Positions 46,776 through 59,422 of a stretch of DNA of 64,000 nucleotides are shown here, one piece after another. The stretch lies in contig NW_026252090.1 in NCBI RefSeq assembly GCF_025399195.1, forward strand, positions 372,001-436,000, in the 5' to 3' direction. A program made the translations under genes and the position numbers. The stretch's first letter is position 1. Every line of letters begins with the position of its first letter. Below the pieces are notes generated by a model that was not told the DNA's origin, did no database searches, and saw only the letters and a list, made by a program, of their open reading frames with translations. The DNA comes from Umbelopsis ramanniana AG. Lineage: Eukaryota > Mucoromycota > Umbelopsidomycetes > Umbelopsidales > Umbelopsidaceae.

Positions 46776-47914
46776 ATGCCAATTACAATAGAGAATCAGT
46801 GCGCACAACCAGAGGACATAAATCCCACTCCAAGATCCAAGGAGCTGCGGGAACTTTTTATTCAAGTGTTACAAGAAAATTCACCCTGCGATGCCATTTT
46901 ATTGTCGGGCGGACTGGATACCTCCGTCATAGCAGAAGCCTGCTCCGATCAACCTAACATCCTAAACATCAGTACTGGCATTACTGTCTGCTGTGGTGAA
47001 ACTGCATCTGATCGTCCATTTTCAACGGAGATAGCTCGAAAGCTTGGCGTTCAGCATAAGCTAATCGAGTTTGATAGCCCATTGGAACTTATTCGAGACC
47101 AGGAGTTACTCGACTTCTCTGTCAAAACGCTAAAGACATTTGATCCAATGGAATTGCGCAACTCGATTGTTATAGCAAAATCCATGCTCTTGGCAAAGGA
47201 ACTTGGTGTTAAATCGCTTGCTGCTGGAGATGGAGCTGACGAGGTAAATATTTCTGCCACTTCTAATGATCAGGACACGGCCTGGAATTAACCCTTTCTA
47301 TCCAGATATTCGCTGGTTATAGCTTTATGCACGGTATGCCCGAGGAAAAACTGCTATTATATATTAAGCATATGACAGAGACAATGACATTTTGTGCCAA
47401 GAAATTTGGAGACGTTCTGGGCATTCGCATCATACAGCCATACTTGGACCTTCGGGTCATCAAATTTGCCAAATCGTGTACATCTCGAGGGGAACTCATT
47501 CAATCAGTCAATATTCCGGATGGCGACACGGGTAATACAAAGCAGGCACTCCATGGTAAGATGGTCCTTCGCCTAGCATTTCCTGAGGCAACGTCTTGTT
47601 GGCGCAAAAAGGATCCTATTGAACAGGGAAGTGGAACAACGATACTTCCACAACTCCTTCAGGCTGAAGCGGACAAGTCTTTCGAAACCACTCAACAAGA
47701 TATACTTGAGAAATACTCCATCAAAATCCGTGACCCTGAACATCTATACTATTTCAAGGCATTCCAACGAGTGTTTGGGCACAACTTAGACAATGGTCTT
47801 GAGCGCAATGGCAGTGATCCTTGTATAGGCTGCCGTTTTCAGCTACCGGATGATAAAGCCATGTTTTGCAAAGTTTGCGGAGCCTGGCCAGCCCGCGAAA
47901 CGGACACAAATTAG
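46776..47914 (+). CDS. Asparagine-synthase-type ATP pyrophosphatase with C-terminal zinc ribbon
   Basis: Two exons (46776-47243 and 47306-47914) encode 358 residues. The adenylating PP-loop is clear at residues 44-50 (SGGLDTS), followed by the typical ISTGITVCCGE strand, DRPFSTEIARKLGVQH, and LAAGDGADEIFAGY, with the intron inside the last motif. These are the ATP- and aspartate-binding signatures of the asparagine synthase C-terminal domain. The N-terminal glutaminase domain with its catalytic Cys2 is absent, so the protein would need ammonia, another amide donor, or a different substrate. The last 40 residues carry a four-cysteine zinc ribbon (CIGCRF ... MFCKVCGAWPA). Similar short forms are, to my knowledge, found in archaea and some fungi; function is not established. 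Not ordinary Asn1/Asn2. Confidence 0.8.
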
Positions 47915-50408: not shown

Positions 50409-51314
50409 TCATATGGCATCGTTATGATTGATATTTTCTACAAGTTCAAGCAATCCGTCAATATGAGGAAGTGTCTTCACCTTGGTAAATGCTGCAAAGA
50501 TAGCGTTCAATTCCTGGTCAATGTCATCCGAAACATTCACTTCGTCATTATGCTGATTTGGGTTGTAGAAAAAGGAATCCAGATCTTCATACTGAACACT
50601 ATTGGTATGCGAATTTTCCTCGGCGTAGAGGTGGGTCAAGTCCGATTTGGGCACGTCCTTCAGCGCATCCGAATACATGTTCTTGAAGGTGGATTCGGCC
50701 ACCTCCCACTTAGGCCAGGCGGCATTGTTTCTGTGCAGTCTTCCCCACGCTTCATCCAGCCCTGAGACCTGGTCGTTAAAGTCGTGGACAGTAGCAATGT
50801 TGTGTTCGTTTTGGTCTAGCCAGATAATAGCCTGCTTGACGATCAAAACGTCACCGAGAGATCCGATGTCATATTGCTTGACATAGGTCTCCAAGTCTTC
50901 CACATATTGCTCAAATTGATTGGATGTTGAGTTACTTTCGTAGTTGTCTGTATTTCCATCGTTTGAGTGTGCGGTGGTAGTATCCCAGTCGCCTTGATAA
51001 ATTTCGTCGAAAAGATCATTCCAACCGGGCCAGAGAGGGAAATCGGTATATATAATACCAAGTTTGTTCCTGAAGTCTGCCATTTCAGCCTTGTATTCTG
51101 AAGATGAATGGTCGGATGTGGATTGAATTTTCGCTAGATCTGCTTGAAGTTGTTGCCGTAGAGGATAAACATATTTATTACGACTGACTGCGTAGTTAAA
51201 CAAGCTGTCTAGTTCTTGAGAGATACTGTGCGTTGAGTCACCGTATGAGGTGGGAGCAGCCTGCACTAACGCTCCAGTGACGGCAAGCGCGACGATGTAA
51301 GTGAAGATTCGCAT
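50409..51314 (-). CDS. Secreted protein with two copies of a WxxW helical domain
   Basis: Single-exon gene for 301 residues. The frame is open to an ATG at 51348-51350, but the ATG at 51312-51314 is preferred: it gives a clean signal peptide (MRIFTYIVALAVTGALVQAA, cleavage before PTSYG) and matches the start of the neighbouring paralogue, while a TATA-like AAATAAATAAAG lies about 45 bp upstream of it. The mature protein has two similar helical modules, each ending in a Trp motif: SQELDSLFNYAV to FPLWPGWNDLF, and QYVEDLETYVKQYD to NAAWPKWEVAE. It also has an acidic Asn/Ser/Thr linker with N-glycosylation sites and an acidic C-terminus. No known domain recognised. It is a tandem relative of the gene at 52086-53771. 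Confidence 0.75.
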   Translation of the reverse strand: MRIFTYIVALAVTGALVQAAPTSYGDSTHSISQELDSLFNYAVSRNKYVYPLRQQLQADLAKIQSTSDHSSSEYKAEMADFRNKLGIIYTDFPLWPGWNDLFDEIYQGDWDTTTAHSNDGNTDNYESNSTSNQFEQYVEDLETYVKQYDIGSLGDVLIVKQAIIWLDQNEHNIATVHDFNDQVSGLDEAWGRLHRNNAAWPKWEVAESTFKNMYSDALKDVPKSDLTHLYAEENSHTNSVQYEDLDSFFYNPNQHNDEVNVSDDIDQELNAIFAAFTKVKTLPHIDGLLELVENINHNDAI

Positions 51315-51356
51315 ATACGCGGGAAGGGGCAAGGCTTTGTTGAAAAACATTGAAGG

Positions 51357-51371
51357 CTTTATTTATTTATC
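51357..51371 (-). promoter_or_regulatory. TATA-like A/T stretch of the secreted protein gene
   Basis: Reads GATAAATAAATAAAG on the minus strand, 43-57 bp upstream of the preferred ATG (51314) but only 7 bp from the longer-start ATG. This spacing supports the shorter start. Confidence 0.45.
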
Positions 51372-51538
51372 ATCCCTTCTTCGGCCCAGCCTTAGTTACC
51401 TGCAGGCTGGGGGAAGCTCAGCCTCTGTATTCGGTGGCTCGCGTCGATTAAAAATAAACACGGCAGGTGGCTGTACAGTCACACAGCTGCCAACATTTTG
51501 TTGACCCGCTAGTTGCGAAGCCGTTACGGAATATGTGA

Positions 51539-51685
51539 ACGAAGCTCAAACAGCTCAACATTATCTTTGGAACGAAGACTGTACCTTATGATGCTAAGGG
51601 AAAGCAGTACCCATTGACTTGGAAGCATTATCATACACCGGCTGGTACTGAAATCAATAAGCCTTTTGATCTCTTGCCATATTAG
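51539..51685 (+). pseudogene. Orphan C-terminal-like coding fragment
   Basis: An open stretch of 48 codons between a TGA and TAG, without ATG, reading KLKQLNIIFGTKTVPYDAKG, then KQYPLTWKHYHTPAGTEINK and PFDLLPY, where the frame ends. Composition is protein-like (aromatic, Gly/Pro turns, balanced charge) and unlike the surrounding spacer. It looks like the last exon of a lost gene stranded between the two secreted-protein genes. I do not recognise the family. Chance is possible at this length. Confidence 0.35.
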
Positions 51686-52085
51686 AGAATATACCAAAAC
51701 ACATTTTTCTGATGCTCGCTAATGCTCACCCGAGAACTTCTCTGTACAACTTTCAATTCCTATGCTGACTGATTAAAAGGATCATTATATATCATTTTCA
51801 TGAAAGCGCGTATGATTACTCATATTATGTCATTCCTAGTCCAAGCCTAATCATTCTAATGAGATCAAGTTGAAGACAGCAGATGGGTACATAACAACAG
51901 TTTAAAAAAATACTTTATGAATTTAAGAATTCGAGTGGTAGAGGGGAAATTGGTAGAAAATGGGTTTTTAATGTTTAAATATACTTATGCTACATTTGTT
52001 TACTGACAAGAGCGTGGAGGGATATGCAGAAAATTGTAAGCCTTTGGTTTGGATTTGGGGGGTTCAATTTCAGTCGTTCTAGTCA

Positions 52086-53771
52086 CTAATAGTCACCAGG
52101 CTTATTGGCACCATCGTAGCCATTACCACCATTGCCGGACCAGTCGCCAGGCTTGTTGGCACCGTCATAGCCATTGCCGCCACTGCCGCCACTGCCAGAC
52201 CAGTCATCTTGCTTGTTAGCACCATCATAGCCATTGCCGCCACTGCCAGACCAGTCATCTTGCTTGTTAGCACCATCATAGCCAGTTCCATCATCGCCAG
52301 ACCAGTCACCAGGCTTGTTAGCGCCATCGTAGCCATTGCCACCATAATCATCATATTTTTTGTTGTTATGGTTCCAGTCGTTCTTGCCATGTTCGCTATC
52401 CCAGTCGTGGTTTTTGTAGTGGTCCCAGTCATCATTGCGGCTGTCATCGCCGTAACCATTATCATGATTCCAGTTGTTCTTGCCGTGTTCATTGTTCCAG
52501 TCCTTTCCATGGCTCTTGTCCCAGTCCTTTCCATGGTCATTGTTCCAGTCCTTTCCGTGATTCTTGTCCCAATCGTTACCACCATTGTAATGATCAAGGT
52601 AGTCGTTTGTGTTGCGGACTATATCCCAGCCACTGCCTCCATTCTTGCCCTGATCTTTGTTACCATCACTGCCGTGGTTTTTGTTCCAGTCACTGCCATG
52701 GTCCTTATTCCAGTCATTCTTGCCGTGGTCTTTGTTCCAGTCACTGCCATGGTCCTTATTCCAGTCATTCTTTCCATGGTCTTTGTTCCAATCACTGCCA
52801 TGGTCCTTATTCCAGTCATTATCACCACCATTGTTATGATCCCAGTCATCCTTTCCGTGATTGTTGTTCCAATCCTTTCCATGGCTCTTGTCCCAATCAC
52901 TGCCACGATCCTTGTTCCAGTCACCACCGCGGCCCTTATTCCAGTCATCATTACCGCCGTTGTTATGATCCCAGTCATTCTTTCCATGGTCCTTGTTCCA
53001 GTCACTACCGTGGTCCTTATTCCAATCACCACCACGGTCCTTGTTCCAATCACCTCCACGACCGCTATTCCAGTCATGGTCACCATCATTGTGGTGATCC
53101 CAGTCATTCTTGCCGTGGTCTTTGTTCCAGTCCTTTCCATGGTCTTTGTTCCAATCCTTTCCATGGTCCCAGTCCTTTCCATGCTTCCAATCTTTACCGT
53201 GGCTCTTGTCCCAGTCACTTCCATGGCCCTTGTTCCAATCGTTGCCACCATTGGAATGCTCAAGGTAGTTGTCCCAGTCGTTCTTGCCGTGGTCTTTGTT
53301 CCAGTCTGAGCCATGATTGTTATTCCTGTCCCCATTACGTCCACTGTTCCATGAGTGATCCTCATCGTAATCAGAGTGGGTGGTGGTGTCACCGCTGTAA
53401 GAGTCACCACTGTAAGAGTCACCGCCATAATTGGTCATATCAGGCAGGTAACTCCAGCCCTGCCAGCCGGGGACCTCGGATTTGAGTTTGGTGACAAGAG
53501 CCTCTAGCTCTTGCAATTTTTGCTGTGCTTCTTCCTTATTACTATCGGAATATTCATATTCGAAATAATAAATATCTTGAACCAGTGATTGATAGTCGGA
53601 TTCGGCGGAAGGGTCGTTTTGCTGGATATAATTGTGGAGATCTTCAAGACCCGCGTTCAATTCTTGTTCGGTTGTGTTGGAGTCACCGTCATTGGTGTGT
53701 CGGTATAATGGAGCAGCAATGGCAAATTGAGCTGTCACAAGAAGTGCAGCAGCAGCTATGAACAGTCTCAT
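52086..53771 (-). CDS. Secreted Asp-Trp-Asn-Lys-Asp-His-Gly repeat protein
   Basis: Single-exon gene for 561 residues. Signal peptide MRLFIAAAALLVTAQFAIAA, then a helical domain of about 100 residues related to the modules of the neighbouring gene (EQELNAGLEDLHNYIQ ... SEVPGWQGWSYL). From about residue 115 the protein becomes a low-complexity array of 8-9 residue units, consensus DWNKDHGK/S with an optional extra N before DW. Roughly 32 Asp-Trp pairs occur at near-regular spacing, interspersed with DHNNGGND linkers. The last 85 residues switch to five Gly-rich units of consensus NGYDGANKPGDWSG. There is no dibasic Kex2 pattern, no GPI-like tail and only one membrane segment (the signal). Likely an extracellular or wall-associated protein; function unknown. 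Metal binding through His/Asp and aromatic stacking are inferences. Confidence 0.8.
   Translation of the reverse strand: MRLFIAAAALLVTAQFAIAAPLYRHTNDGDSNTTEQELNAGLEDLHNYIQQNDPSAESDYQSLVQDIYYFEYEYSDSNKEEAQQKLQELEALVTKLKSEVPGWQGWSYLPDMTNYGGDSYSGDSYSGDTTTHSDYDEDHSWNSGRNGDRNNNHGSDWNKDHGKNDWDNYLEHSNGGNDWNKGHGSDWDKSHGKDWKHGKDWDHGKDWNKDHGKDWNKDHGKNDWDHHNDGDHDWNSGRGGDWNKDRGGDWNKDHGSDWNKDHGKNDWDHNNGGNDDWNKGRGGDWNKDRGSDWDKSHGKDWNNNHGKDDWDHNNGGDNDWNKDHGSDWNKDHGKNDWNKDHGSDWNKDHGKNDWNKDHGSDWNKNHGSDGNKDQGKNGGSGWDIVRNTNDYLDHYNGGNDWDKNHGKDWNNDHGKDWDKSHGKDWNNEHGKNNWNHDNGYGDDSRNDDWDHYKNHDWDSEHGKNDWNHNNKKYDDYGGNGYDGANKPGDWSGDDGTGYDGANKQDDWSGSGGNGYDGANKQDDWSGSGGSGGNGYDGANKPGDWSGNGGNGYDGANKPGDY
52089..52345 (-). 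repeat. Gly-rich C-terminal tandem repeats (NGYDGANK-x-DWSG units)
   Basis: Five copies of a unit of about 51-60 bp, differing by short Gly/Ser insertions and by KPGDW versus KQDDW. Copies are highly similar at the DNA level, suggesting recent expansion. Confidence 0.88.
52340..53310 (-). repeat. 24/27-bp coding tandem array (DWNKDHG units)
   Basis: Minisatellite made of degenerate 24- and 27-bp units, coding DWNKDHGS and NDWNKDHGK variants. Because unit length is a multiple of three, several frames on both strands stay open across it. Confidence 0.9.
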
Positions 53772-53814: not shown

Positions 53815-53822
53815 GTATTTAT
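53815..53822 (-). promoter_or_regulatory. TATA-like box of the repeat-protein gene
   Basis: ATAAATAC on the minus strand, 44 bp upstream of the ATG at 53771, a similar arrangement to the tandem neighbour. Confidence 0.4.
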
Positions 53823-54863
53823 GGATATGGCGTATAGCTACATGAGGCAGAGGCTGTGTTAGCTAACGCATGAGCCTCAAAATACGGCTGGCTGTTAGAA
53901 AATTTTCTCCACACAGGTACTGAAATAAACACTTTGATCCACGCTGTCACTTTTCAGAATAAACCATGGTATTCTCAAGAACTTGTCGCGCGTCCACCAT
54001 CAAGCTCTGAATAATAGTAAATGTCTATGCTAATGGTCATAGCTACATTTCTATCAACGAATGCTGCCGAGGCGAGGGCTGATCCTGGGCTGTGTTGTAG
54101 AAACAAGCGCCTCAAATCAATAACAACATTGGGTCATTTGGACTAGAATGAGCTTCGGGATACCGCCCGGCACGCCCCTTTATGGTGCATTAAGCCACTG
54201 AAGCGCAAGATCCGCCATCTTGGTAAAAATATAATTGGCTAAGGACGAGGCTTGAGCAAGGAGGCAGCATAAAGGCTTATGATCTACCATGACAAAGATG
54301 ACCTTTGCTTTTCAGTGTCAAGAAGCGGCAGTCATAGCATCTTGTAGAACATCATACCTGTGCTCAAAAATCATAGAGAGCAATCTACCAAACCATTTGA
54401 TGCTGTTCAAAAGTAAAAAAAGAAAAAGCGCTTTGCCTTGCGCGATGTTTATGATGTGCCTTGCGGCTTAGATGGCGGATGTGGGTCATTTCCTTTTTGT
54501 TTTTGTTTCTACTGTTTTAAATTGGACATTTTAATTTTTTTTTAGGAAAAAAGAAAATTGAATGAATGAATGAATGGAAGGAAGGAAGGAGTATATCAAG
54601 CAGCCACGTACATGCATAGCCATTACTTGCGAATTTTCAAAAATATGCCGTTGTAAAACAAAGCTACTGAGTGAATGAGTGAATTAGTGTTGAAGGAACA
54701 GAAACCAAAAAAAAAAAAACGAAAGAGGGAAGAACATATACTTTCTCCCCAGGTGGGATCTCTCCATTGCATTGGAAGAAAAGATATGAAAGAATGATAT
54801 GTGCAAAACAAAAAAGATTGACAAAAAAGAAACACTAGTTGAATAGAAATATCAGAAGCCGGT
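53823..54863. other. Spacer upstream of the repeat-protein gene and downstream of the ApsA-like gene
   Basis: About 1 kb without a supported gene. It contains a tetranucleotide tract (GAAT then GGAA units, about 54559-54590), an A run near 54708-54719, and the 3' UTR of the ApsA/Num1-like gene. Confidence 0.5.
54559..54590. repeat. GAAT/GGAA tetranucleotide microsatellite
   Basis: Four GAAT units followed by several GGAA units, a compound simple repeat in non-coding sequence. Confidence 0.8.
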
Positions 54864-57800
54864 TCAATTGACAGATCCGTTTCCACTGGTGATACTCGTG
54901 GCGAAAGGCTGATCAAAACTTGCTCCAGATACTGGACGGTATTGTTTAGATGAGCGATGATGGTGTTGATGTTTTTCTAGTTTGGATATATGATGTTTTC
55001 CATCGCAACACATGCGGACATCCTCCAAATCTTCAAGGTCGTCGTCGTTCAAACCATCACCAGCATACCTGGCACTGTCGGCCCTGGAAGGAGCATGGCT
55101 TGCTGAGCTACTAAACACACTTTGAATGCGCTGATAGCTTGGTTTTCTCAAAAGAATCGATGGATTGCTTCGCATAGACTGTGGATCTGGTCTTGGCTGG
55201 GCCATACCAAGCACGTTACCAGTGGGTCGAGCTAGCAAATAGTTGATAGCTTGAAGCCAAATTTCATGTTGAGCAATATCAGGTGCCGTGAACTTGATGT
55301 CTCGAGTCGACGTTTTGACAACAAGACTGACATTGGGTAGACCGGGAGGACTGTTGGAATGTTCTGGGACCGAGGTGATGCTCTCAATGTTGACACTCTT
55401 CGCCTTGGCTTCACCATTCGAACCGGGTTCCTTCATACTCCAGTACAACGTACGAGAGTAAGGGTGTATCCAGAAGAATCGACGATGTCGGTTATCGGAA
55501 AATCCACTACCCACTGCCTTGCGAGTGTTCTTGTACATCCAACCACCGATCATGGTTTGAGTGATATTGGATACAATGTTGGGCGCCATGGTCGATGAAT
55601 ATCCTTCCTTTTCAGAAATTGGTTTATAAATAGACGATGATGCACGCCGAGAACCAGATCCTAGATCACTGCGACTGATATTATCAAACTCGCGCTTGTT
55701 AGCAAATGTAATCTCATTACCATCAGGAGACGCAGAAAGCGCTGCCAAGTTCTTTTGGGTGAGCTTGCTGGGTTGGTATGCAGTATTAAAAATGGTAGCA
55801 TGTCCGTGGGCACGATCTTCATGTGGCACTGCGGTCCGGAGCGATGACATTGCTTCTTCTCCACTGGGTGATGCTTTAATATCTTCAATGGGGGCTTCCT
55901 GGTGGGCCACAGTAGGGTGTGCGGATAAGGAGTGCTTTTCTGCCGCCATACCAATACCGACAATACCACCCGTTAAAGCGGCTGCTTCCACAAGCTTGGA
56001 TGAAGTATTTTGAGCTGATCCATTGGACTGTTCATCACTAGAAATTGCAGTTGGAACATCCCTAGTGGCTTGTGGCAATGACATATTTTCTTGTTGCACT
56101 TGTTTGGCGGGAACCCCGGTGGCAGTGTTTGTGGCAGTATCATGATCGACTACTGCAGGTATGCTAGCATGGGACTTTTCGCCAAAAACGTCAGCATCTT
56201 CGCCACCTTCTGTCATGTCACCAGTCTTCATGTTGGCTTCAGCTACAGCTGGAGCCATCTGCTCAGCCGCACTTGGCATCACCGCGGCGAAGTCCTTATA
56301 TTGTTGATCAGGAACTGCATCGCCCGATGGCGTATATCCATTGACTGGTGGAGAAACAACTGGATGTGATGACACCACTTCATCAGCGGTAGTATGCAAA
56401 GGAGATGATTTGTTATCAGCTAACGCATAAGCACCGGCAGCAACACCTGCAGCTAAAGCAGTGGTGGCCAAAATATCGGAAGAAGGTATATCTGCTTTCT
56501 CAGATGAGGCAGCATGGTCGATGGGTATGGGCTTGCCTTCGGTTTCTTGATCAGCAGATACAAGAATGGGCAAAGCCGTTGCAACGTTACGTTCAGAAGA
56601 AGGTGTATCATCTGGCGCAGTTTGAGTGGCAGCATCAACAAGAATAGGCTTACTCTCAACCGCTTGGACGGTAGCAACATTATCCGTTTGGGCAAGCGTG
56701 GGTGTTGAAGTAGGGGCATGACCTTCAGGTACTTCGGCTGTGAAAAAAAAAATTTAGAAACTGTTTGATGTGGAAAAATCATAATGAGTCTTGTATGCAT
56801 ACCTGCGCTGGTGTCCATTACATCATTCGCACCCTCGTGCTCATCTGATGTTACAGAAGTGTTGTTCGCTACCTCAGGGATAGCAAGAGTAGAAACAACT
56901 GACTGAGCCACTTCCGGTTGGGCAACTGCCTTGTCGTTTAATTCTACTTCACCTGGCAAGGTCGATTGAGCTTCCATTGTACGGTCGATCATTTGGGCAT
57001 TTTCGGGTTCCTCGCTTTGCTCTGTCTTATGGGCAGTATCAACGGGTACGGGAGTAGCATCTTCAGTAATAGGAAGGCTGGAATCTGTACTGACTTTGTC
57101 GTTGAGCTCTTGAGCAGTAACCTGTTCTACAACTGCATTTTGCTTTTTCTGCTCAATAGGTGAAACGATGGACTTATCCGTTATCTCAGGCTCGGAAGCT
57201 TGTGTTGGACTAGTTGCAGCAGCATACGCTCCATCACGCTTAGTGAGTTGTGTTGGACTAGTTGCAGCAGCATACGCTCCATCACGCTTAGTGAGCTCAT
57301 GAGCAGCCAAACCACCAGCAGCCAATCCGGCAACAGCAGACAGTCCATTGAATGCAGATGGAGTATCAATTACATCTGTATTGACCCCTGTATCAACGTG
57401 GATCACTTGGGGTTGCTCAGCAGGAATAGATTCGCTAACAAAGACAACCGGGTCTGTATTCACTCCCATATCAACACCTGGATTGTAGTTCTTGCTGCCA
57501 GAAAGTTCGGATGACAAGGGAACAAAATTGGCTTGAGCCAAACCGAGAGAGGCTTTGGCATCCAGAGTATGAATGCTGTCCGAATCGCTCGTCTCACTTA
57601 AACCTCCAGATGAATCGAAACGTCTATGAAGGTCATCAGGGTGGTCGTCATAATCGTCTTCGGAATTATCGCTATTGAGAATTTCAAGTTCGTCGATATC
57701 CTCATACTCTTCATCATCGCTAGGTCGTCGAGGGGTGAGGCCTTTGGCGCGTCGAGCAGGAGCACGCTTCTTGTTTCCGGCTTTCTTGAGTCGGCGACCA

Positions 57801-59422
57801 GAGGCAGAGAGACTACCAGCAGCACCTTCACCTGTGCCATAACCGGATCCACTAGCACGGTCTGCACCAACATCGGCCCACATGTGGGATCCGTTTCTCA
57901 ATTGCTCAATGGTCTCTTGAGAGTCAGCCAAATGTTTCTTTAGTTCAAAGCGATCCTGTTTCTCTTTATGGAGAGATGATCTCAAATTGGAAATCATGCG
58001 ATGCGCGTGTGAGAGCGACGTCTTGAGGGTTTCCAATTCAAGAGCAGTATTGCGGGGAGCATGTGTTGGTGAAGGCGGCGGTGAAGCATTTGGTGAGTGA
58101 CCATGTTGCTTTCCATTCGCCTCGTCGTCAGAACCATTCGTATTTGCATTATCACCATTTCCAGCGAGATCAGCATCTGTGATACTTTTTCTGTTGGACT
58201 TGCTAAGACTGCGAACCGCTATCAATTCTGCGGCGGTAGTTTCCAATTGCTTGGCGACTTCATTTTTTTCACGCTGTAGAGTACTGGAATGTTTGCGCAT
58301 GGTATTCATATCTTGTTCATGGCGAGTTTTCATGGTTTCGACTTGTGACGTTAGTTTTTCTTCTGTACTACGCAACACCTCCACTTCCTGAGTCAGGCTA
58401 GTAAGCTGCTTCGACATCTTGTTTTGATCGGTGACTGACTTGCTTAATGAGTGTTGAAGTTCAGCCATAGAATTTCCAAGCTCTTGTTTTGCGAGTTCCA
58501 AATTCCAAGCATCCTCTTTCAGATGTTCTAAAAAACCATACAAGTGTTAGCGTCAAAATACCATTGTGTACGACCGTGATTTCAACTACGGGGCAGAGGG
58601 GGGTTTTACCTTCACTTTCTTGGCTTTGCTTAAGCTGCTTAGCAAGTACTTCAGCTAACCTTTCACTTTCTGCTTTATCTGTTTCTAGTCGGCGAAGTTG
58701 CTCCTCCTTCTCCTGCAGTAAAGATTGCATTTTCCTAACCTCCAACAGCAGGCCTTGGCCGATTTCCGTTGCAAATTCGATATCATTATTGCGTCTGTCG
58801 GTATTCGGTACCTTTGAGCGCCGTTTGGTTGGAGTGGTGCTTTGAGGAGGAGGAGGTAGCAAGGATGAAGTCGATGGTGGAGGAAGTATGGTGGATGAAG
58901 TTGGAGTAGGTAAAGGATCGCCAGTTGAGTTACGATTATTTAACTAGTGAATACAAAAACATACCACAATTAAAAAGACATTCTCCATGCAAGCAGTAAA
59001 TGATGCATAAGTTATTTTAGCTTGTTCCACGTTACCTTATCGGTTCGTTTCAATGGAGGTGAGCCCATGAAACCTGCATATGATTTATAGGCATTCAGCT
59101 CTCGCTCCAGAGTTTGTAATTTTTCTTTGGTAGCTGGAGACAAGTCATCCTCATTGATGACCGCTGTAGCAGCTTCGGCGTCCTTCTCCTTTTCTTGACT
59201 GGCATATTTTTGCAACATACTTTGGGTTGTGTCGCTTTGAGAAGGTTGTAGACCACCACGCTGTTTATCGGTGTGAGGAATTCTTCTTGTCCTAACCCCT
59301 GGTGAACTAGAGGTTTGAAGTGAAACTGAAGCACTCAACGGCTGTGGCGAGGTTTGTTGTGACAAAGGAGTTGAACTTGACACTTTGGGTATAAGTGAAG
59401 AGGTATCCTCTGGTTTAGACAT
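54864..59422 (-). CDS. ApsA/Num1-like cortical anchor with coiled coils and PH domain
   Basis: Large cortical protein of about 1,440 residues, resembling Aspergillus ApsA, yeast Num1 and fission-yeast Mcp5, which anchor dynein or mitochondria at the cell cortex. ATG 59420-59422. The N-terminus is Ser/Thr/Pro-rich, with a basic RRIPHTDKQRGG segment. Coiled coils follow: EVRKMQSLLQEKEEQLRRLE, then LAKQELGNSMAELQHSL to EKNEVAKQLETTAAELIAVR. The middle is acidic and disordered, with three Ala/Gly-rich hydrophobic stretches (for example AVAGLAAGGLAAHELTK and ATTALAAGVAAGAYALA). The C-terminal PH domain is diagnostic: GGWMYKNTRKAVGSGF, HRRFFWIHPYSRTLYWSM, VVKTSTRDIKFTAPD and HEIWLQAINYLLARP. Three introns (about 56738-56800, 58530-58610, 58945-59034). 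A 48-bp tandem duplication and several VDxxxxT repeats are noted separately. Confidence 0.83.
57201..57296 (-). repeat. 48-bp tandem duplication within the ApsA-like gene
   Basis: Two adjacent, nearly identical 48-bp units (differences only at the right boundary), coding two copies of LTKRDGAYAAATSPTQ. In frame and apparently recent. Confidence 0.92.

What the first reader, a model, noticed from the sequence alone, without database searches (positions are those of the whole stretch)
50409..53771. Tandem secreted proteins sharing a new-looking domain, one with a DWNKDHG repeat array
Seen: two same-strand, intronless genes with closely similar signal peptides and TATA placement, sharing a helical module that ends in Pro-x-Trp-x-x-Trp (two copies in one, one copy in the other). 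The second adds about 32 regularly spaced Asp-Trp pairs in 8-9-residue units rich in Asp, Asn, Lys, His and Gly, then five Gly-rich NGYDGANK units. I know no described family with this repeat. No Kex2 sites, so not a processed-peptide precursor. Inferred roles: extracellular metal (Zn/Cu/Ni) binding, wall or surface polymer binding through stacked Trp, or a condensate/adhesive matrix.
Basis: partly seen in the sequence, partly recalled or inferred. Interest (0 to 1): 0.78.

Follow-up and report, generated by a model that had tools for sequence, protein, structure and literature searches.

The report
Secreted Asp-Trp repeat protein in Umbelopsis
A soil fungus carries two neighbouring genes for secreted-looking proteins that share an undescribed helical module, and one of them adds a long, regular array of Asp-Trp units whose calculated charge changes sign with acidity; it looks like a lineage-specific surface or matrix protein of unproven function.

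Summary
Two intronless minus-strand genes (50409-51314 and 52086-53771) encode proteins with similar signal peptides and a shared helical module carrying Trp-x-x-Trp near its end. The genome is inferred to be Umbelopsis. P1 has two modules and eight homologs, of which the four named are Umbelopsis. P2 has one module, 32 Asp-Trp pairs in an array (26 of 31 spacings are 8-10 residues) and five GYDGANK units. Repeat units differ mostly at silent positions (pS 0.84, pN 0.14 over 22 of 32 units), so the array looks translated and constrained, although one antisense frame also scores low. I found no Pfam, NCBIfam, PDB-sequence or clear fold match. Neither P2 search returned P2 itself, while the P1 search returned P1, so P2 is probably unannotated. 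The array occurs once in its genome. Corrections: P1 starts at Met13, and its second module lacks the Pro of Pro-x-Trp-x-x-Trp. My preferred mechanism is a secreted, disordered, multivalent Trp/His chain held by the helical module, with calculated array charge from +12 at pH 5 to -24 at pH 7, that associates with wall or matrix polymers depending on pH and metal. That function is inferred only. Interest is moderate.

The parts
50409..51314 (-). P1 coding sequence, 301 aa, two helical modules; start at Met13 of the listed ORF
   Evidence: ORF; start corrected by the 8 homologs
51255..51314 (-). P1 signal peptide (to ..VQAA)
   Evidence: sequence; AAP at its end is invariant in 9 of 9 family members; no signal-peptide program was run
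50997..51230 (-). P1 helical module 1, with PLWPGW
   Evidence: helices 41-56, 62-77, 84-103, 110-118 in the model (numbering of P0001); coordinates
50655..50930 (-). P1 helical module 2, with AAWPKW
   Evidence: helices 141-160, 162-181, 188-208, 215-232; pLDDT about 46-63 in blocks of ten
51364..51369 (-). TAAATA box of P1, -55 from ATG
51452..51461 (-). GTGTTTATTT upstream of P1, shared with P2
   Evidence: not rare: 35 of 500 (180 bases) and 97 of 500 (300 bases) window controls score as high
52086..53771 (-). P2 coding sequence, 561 aa, repeat protein with signal peptide
   Evidence: codon-level constraint
53712..53771 (-). P2 signal peptide (MRLFIAAAALLVTAQFAIAA)
   Evidence: sequence; aligned with the P1 family; no signal-peptide program was run
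53427..53675 (-). P2 helical module, with PGWQGW
   Evidence: model (helices 33-52, 54-76, 79-99, 104-108; pLDDT 64-91 in blocks of ten from 31 to 110); hhalign to P1 module 1
52374..53306 (-). Asp-Trp array, 32 DW pairs, commonest unit DWNKDHG(K/S)
   Evidence: DNA periods 24, 51 and 129 bases among others
52089..52337 (-). Gly-rich tail with five GYDGANK units
53816..53821 (-). TAAATA box of P2, -50 from ATG
53923..53932 (-). GTGTTTATTT upstream of P2, shared with P1

Best explanation
P1 and P2 are paralogous secreted proteins of a family so far seen only in Umbelopsis among named hits. The shared helical module is a folded anchor or association domain. In P2 a long, probably disordered chain of evenly spaced Trp 'stickers' separated by Asp, Asn, Lys, His and Gly stands where P1 has its second module. 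Because of its 34 His the array is calculated to be positive below about pH 5.5 and negative above. I propose that it is a multivalent, pH- and metal-tunable binder that holds itself, P1 and charged wall polymers (chitosan, glucuronan) together at the hyphal surface or in an extracellular matrix. Shown: gene structure, weak module homology, regularity of the array, constraint on its residues. Calculated: charge against pH. Inferred: disorder, secretion, binding partners and role.
For: Similar secretory N-termini and helical modules. Even Trp spacing, 0 of 5000 shuffles. Repeat units diverged mainly at silent sites. Calculated array charge +12.1 at pH 5, +1.4 at 5.5 and -24.2 at pH 7, while the N-module and tail stay acidic from pH 4.5 up. 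Walls of six Mucoromycotina strains, two of them Umbelopsis, had high glucosamine and fucose (PMC7928374, passages), and glucuronic acid is reported for Mucoromycotina walls (PMC7928374 and PMC10481521, passages). Squid beak proteins with GHGxY repeats give a precedent for His deprotonation starting aromatic-stabilised condensation (PMC6884462, passages).
Against: No expression, secretion, binding or phase data. No ortholog of P2 was recovered, so conservation of the array between species is untested. Neither search returned P2 itself. Disorder was not predicted: the array was not modelled. Mature P2 as a whole stays net negative at pH 5 (-9.1), so the change of sign near pH 5.5 holds for the array alone. 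PMC10481521 says that the wall composition of Umbelopsis differs from the mucoran ratio, so glucuronan as a partner is uncertain. The squid paper's peptides carry Tyr, and a search of its text for tryptophan gave 0 occurrences.
Confidence: 0.4

Rival explanations
1. P2 is mainly a metal-binding protein: His and Asp of the DWNKDHG units chelate Zn, Cu, Ni or other cations outside the cell for sequestration or tolerance.
For: 34 His and 73 Asp in 335 array residues. The listing includes a paper on rare-earth tolerance of Umbelopsis isabellina (PMC10218895; title and start of abstract only).
Against: No His-x-His and no Cys in P2, and a single His-His. Trp is a regular part of the unit, and metal binding does not obviously need it. 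The 10 window ORFs that I chose for a Pfam scan showed no metal-handling family; the other ORFs were not scanned.
Confidence: 0.2
2. The array is a calcium-binding repeat: D-x-N-x-D-x-G units act like EF-hand-type or RTX loops and fold on calcium.
For: 27 matches to D-x-[DN]-x-[DNSG]-x-G and 16 to D-x-[DN]-x-D in P2.
Against: 0 matches to the EF-hand-type D-x-[DN]-x-[DN]-G (motif recalled); no Pfam hit to such families at E up to 1; spacing between Asp-Trp pairs varies (6 to 13, and once each 24 and 39), unlike a strict beta-roll.
Confidence: 0.08
3. P1 and P2 are secreted interaction proteins (plant root, bacterial or competitor directed) in which the array binds a partner's glycans or receptors.
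For: Signal peptides, restriction to Umbelopsis among named hits, and a repeat that changes by unequal exchange (51-base units 96% alike). Endohyphal bacteria of Umbelopsis are studied (titles and starts of abstracts in the listing).
Against: No match to a known family of any kind, so no effector or toxin signature; acidic, low-complexity composition; no evidence of induction.
Confidence: 0.15
4. The array is a nearly neutral expansion of a linker, kept because it does no harm; the functional part is the helical module.
For: P1 has a short D/N/H/W-containing linker after module 1 (residues 119-140, QGDWDTTTAHSNDGNTDNYESN) from which such an array could have grown. Several nested periods suggest repeated unequal exchange.
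Against: pN/pS of 0.16 across 22 of 32 array units and 0.105 in the five tail units argues for constraint on the residues; units are not independent, so this is not a formal test.
Confidence: 0.15

Closest known systems
Squid histidine-rich beak proteins (GHGxY repeats)
   Same: Extracellular, low-complexity tandem units that combine His, Gly and an aromatic residue; behaviour set by His protonation (PMC6884462, passages)
   Different: Trp and Asp/Lys/Asn instead of Tyr and hydrophobics; longer units; helical N-module; no sequence relation claimed; condensation not shown here
Spider silk proteins (spidroins)
   Different: No sequence similarity found; repeats unlike silk; fold similarity not significant
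Kex2-processed fungal repeat peptides (recalled)
   Same: Fungal protein with signal peptide and tandem repeats
   Different: No KR or RR sites between units
Umbelopsis P1 family of hypothetical proteins (P0003-P0010)
   Same: Signal peptide and helical modules; P1 is a clear member (37-81% identity)
   Different: None of the eight returned proteins has the Asp-Trp array (sequences); P2 shares only the module, weakly (21-27% identity to the family over its first 125 residues)

Membership tests
Umbelopsis P1 family (two-module secreted protein) | For P1: signal peptide ending AAP and conserved two-module sequence | tested here: met
   53 invariant columns listed for 9 sequences; exceptions: P0006 lacks module 1, and P0009 has Tyr for the first Trp of module 1
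Umbelopsis P1 family (two-module secreted protein) | For P2: shares the module by descent | tested here: met
   hhalign P 2.3e-4 (module 1) and 3.8e-3 (module 2) for P2 residues 22-116; 0 of 300 shuffles reach either score, by narrow margins (26.3 against a maximum of 24.6; 20.6 against 19.9). In the whole genome the only non-self hits of residues 1-120 are the two P1 modules, E 0.181 and 1.17 (the first includes the signal peptide)
Umbelopsis P1 family (two-module secreted protein) | For P2: second module and P1-type tail | tested here: not met
   P2 has the array and GYDGANK tail there instead
EF-hand-type calcium loop | D-x-[DN]-x-[DN]-G (recalled motif) | tested here: not met
   0 matches in P2
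RTX nonapeptide repeat | Match to the family's Pfam profile | tested here: not met
   the only Pfam hit of P2 at E up to 1 is Spatacsin_C at 0.092, below its cut-off
Kex2-processed repeat protein | KR or RR between repeat units | tested here: not met
   none in either protein
pH-responsive condensing repeat protein | Condensation triggered by His deprotonation | not testable with these tools
   only the calculated charge curve
Four-helix bundle of known superfamily | Significant structural match | tested here: inconclusive
   no Foldseek E up to 0.001; best Z for the P2 module 8.6, rmsd 2.8 over 88 residues, to a designed bundle, 7dgu, which may mean only a common arrangement

The most novel reading that the evidence does not exclude
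P2 is a fungal analogue of silk or beak proteins: a Trp-sticker, His-switched polyampholyte that condenses or adheres at the hyphal surface when the surroundings cross about pH 5.5, with P1 as an acidic partner, and whose array length changes between strains by unequal exchange.
Probability: 0.15. Interest if true: 0.65.

Novelty: new variant of a known kind. Interest (0 to 1): 0.42.

Why it matters
If the array is expressed, it offers a natural, evenly spaced Trp-sticker chain with His as a possible pH switch, from a soil fungus. It would be a simple system for testing how sticker spacing and charge control extracellular condensation or wall adhesion. It also suggests that annotation can miss a long low-complexity secreted protein while keeping its neighbour.

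Tried and rejected
Whole-protein homology search with P2: the 7987 candidates sharing most words were scored, none at E <= 0.001; region 1-120: 541 candidates, none at E <= 10. Both consider only proteins of 0.55 to 1.75 times the length of P2. Viral contigs: for the P1 alignment 36 stretches matched a pattern and none was confirmed; for P2 no stretch matched. Bacterial and archaeal genome contigs with P2: 4 stretches matched a pattern, none confirmed. PDB sequences: none at E up to 1 for P1, P2 or the P1 alignment. Pfam on the 9 family members gave ten families, each in one member only, best E 0.033.

Literature: no paper of the open-licence library holds any of six peptide words searched; fungal with secreted and tryptophan-rich repeat gave none. 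Searches on Umbelopsis secretome, genome, metal tolerance, secreted protein and wall and on histidine-rich disordered repeats were seen as listings; no title or start of abstract there describes this family, but I did not read those papers except for passages of PMC10481521 and PMC7928374. The highly expressed reference gene wanted for codon comparison could not be fetched. P1 and P2 have GC3 of 0.50 and 0.54 against 0.39-0.47 in five window ORFs that I chose, only a hint of expression.

Full report
What is there. On the minus strand, two ORFs without introns lie near each other: P2 (52086-53771, 561 aa) is upstream of P1 (50409-51350 as listed). All eight P1 homologs start at the residue equivalent to Met13, so the P1 start is taken as 51314; the gap between the genes is then 771 bases. 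With that start, TAAATA lies 55 bases upstream of P1 and 50 bases upstream of P2. The upstream DNA of the two genes is modestly alike. The global alignment score is reached by 2 of 300 shuffles and 8 of 500 stretches of the window for 120 bases, 1 of 300 and 4 of 500 for 180 bases, and 0 of 300 and 3 of 500 for 300 bases; the best local match is not unusual (54, 35 and 97 of 500). This fits an old tandem duplication or shared control, but is weak.

The organism. The window lies in a genome of 22.8 Mb in 123 contigs. P1 is 81% identical to a protein of Umbelopsis vinacea (P0003). Of the eight homologs found among 847 candidates, four carry Umbelopsis names and four show no organism. I infer an Umbelopsis species.

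The array. P2 has 36 Asp-Trp pairs, 32 in the array and 4 in the tail. Among the 32 array units N is at position 3 in 20, K at position 4 in 19, D at position 5 in 13, H at position 6 in 20, G at position 7 in 26 and K at position 8 in 15. Of the 31 spacings between successive pairs 26 are 8-10 residues; the others are 13, 6, 6, 39 and 24. Tandem Repeats Finder reports DNA periods of 24, 51, 75 and 129 bases; three 51-base copies match at 96%, which points to recent unequal exchange. A degenerate DNA pattern of the unit, with up to 3 mismatches, finds 17 places in the whole genome, all inside this gene, and none with the reversed control pattern.

Is it a real gene? Of the 32 units, 22 fit a strict pattern and were compared; the other 10 were dropped. 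Differences at codon positions 3, 2 and 1 number 811, 259 and 208; pS is 0.844 and pN 0.136, ratio 0.16. The five tail units give 0.105. The five other frames of the same DNA give ratios of 1.48, 0.49, 1.99, 1.88 and 0.22, the last in one antisense frame. The test therefore favours the P2 frame but does not by itself exclude that antisense frame; the ATG, signal peptide, module and TATA box speak for P2. Units are not independent, so no probability is attached. Against a well-known gene: neither P2 search returned P2 itself, although the P1 search returned P1 as a stored protein. I infer that P2 is unannotated or annotated with a very different length. No GTRNG splice-donor-like word occurs in the P2 coding sequence.

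How it may work. The array (residues 141-475) holds 73 Asp, 61 Asn, 51 Gly, 41 Lys, 35 Trp and 34 His; P2 has no Cys and no His-x-His. The calculated charge of the array is +12.1 at pH 5, +1.4 at pH 5.5 and -24.2 at pH 7, while at pH 5 the N-module is -9.8, the tail -7.6, mature P1 -14.8 and mature P2 as a whole -9.1. Evenly spaced aromatic residues with a His switch recall squid beak proteins, where His deprotonation starts condensation (PMC6884462, passages read). Mucoromycotina walls, Umbelopsis included, showed high glucosamine and fucose (PMC7928374, passages); glucuronic-acid polymers are described for the group, though the Umbelopsis wall is said to differ from the mucoran ratio (PMC10481521, passages). 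So a pH-tuned binder of wall or matrix polymers is my preferred reading. Only the sequence features and the charge arithmetic are shown; disorder, location and binding are inferred.

Known or new. No Pfam or NCBIfam family matches P1 or P2 above chance (the only P2 Pfam hit is Spatacsin_C at E 0.092, below its cut-off), nor the P1 family as a whole, and no PDB sequence matches. No paper in the open library contains any of the six repeat words searched. Secreted repetitive proteins are a known general kind in fungi (general knowledge), so I rate this a new variant of a known kind, not categorically new.

Noticed in passing
window 51452-51461 and 53923-53932: Both genes have GTGTTTATTT about 147 and 161 bases upstream of the start codon; possibly a shared control element, but a match of this strength is not rare in the window (35 and 97 of 500 controls for 180 and 300 bases).
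   Followed up: partly
P0006: A P1 homolog of 201 aa lacks module 1, either by real loss or by a wrong gene model; modules may be gained and lost.
   Followed up: no
P0009 and P0010: These two homologs carry two units of the type H-x(2-3)-GV-x-YE-(D/E)-L-x-x-(F/Y)F where P1 has one similar unit, so the P1 tail may also expand by repeats.
   Followed up: no
window 50931-50996 (P1 linker): The linker after P1 module 1 (QGDWDTTTAHSNDGNTDNYESN) resembles the P2 array in composition and might be the kind of sequence from which the array grew.
   Followed up: no
window 46776-47291: Plus-strand ORF with an asparagine synthase domain (E 7.8e-8), a few kilobases from the pair.
   Followed up: no
window 57200-57295: A 48-base tandem duplication (2.0 copies, 100% matches) inside the long ORF 56453-58543, next to an ORF with an Mcp5-type PH domain.
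   Followed up: no
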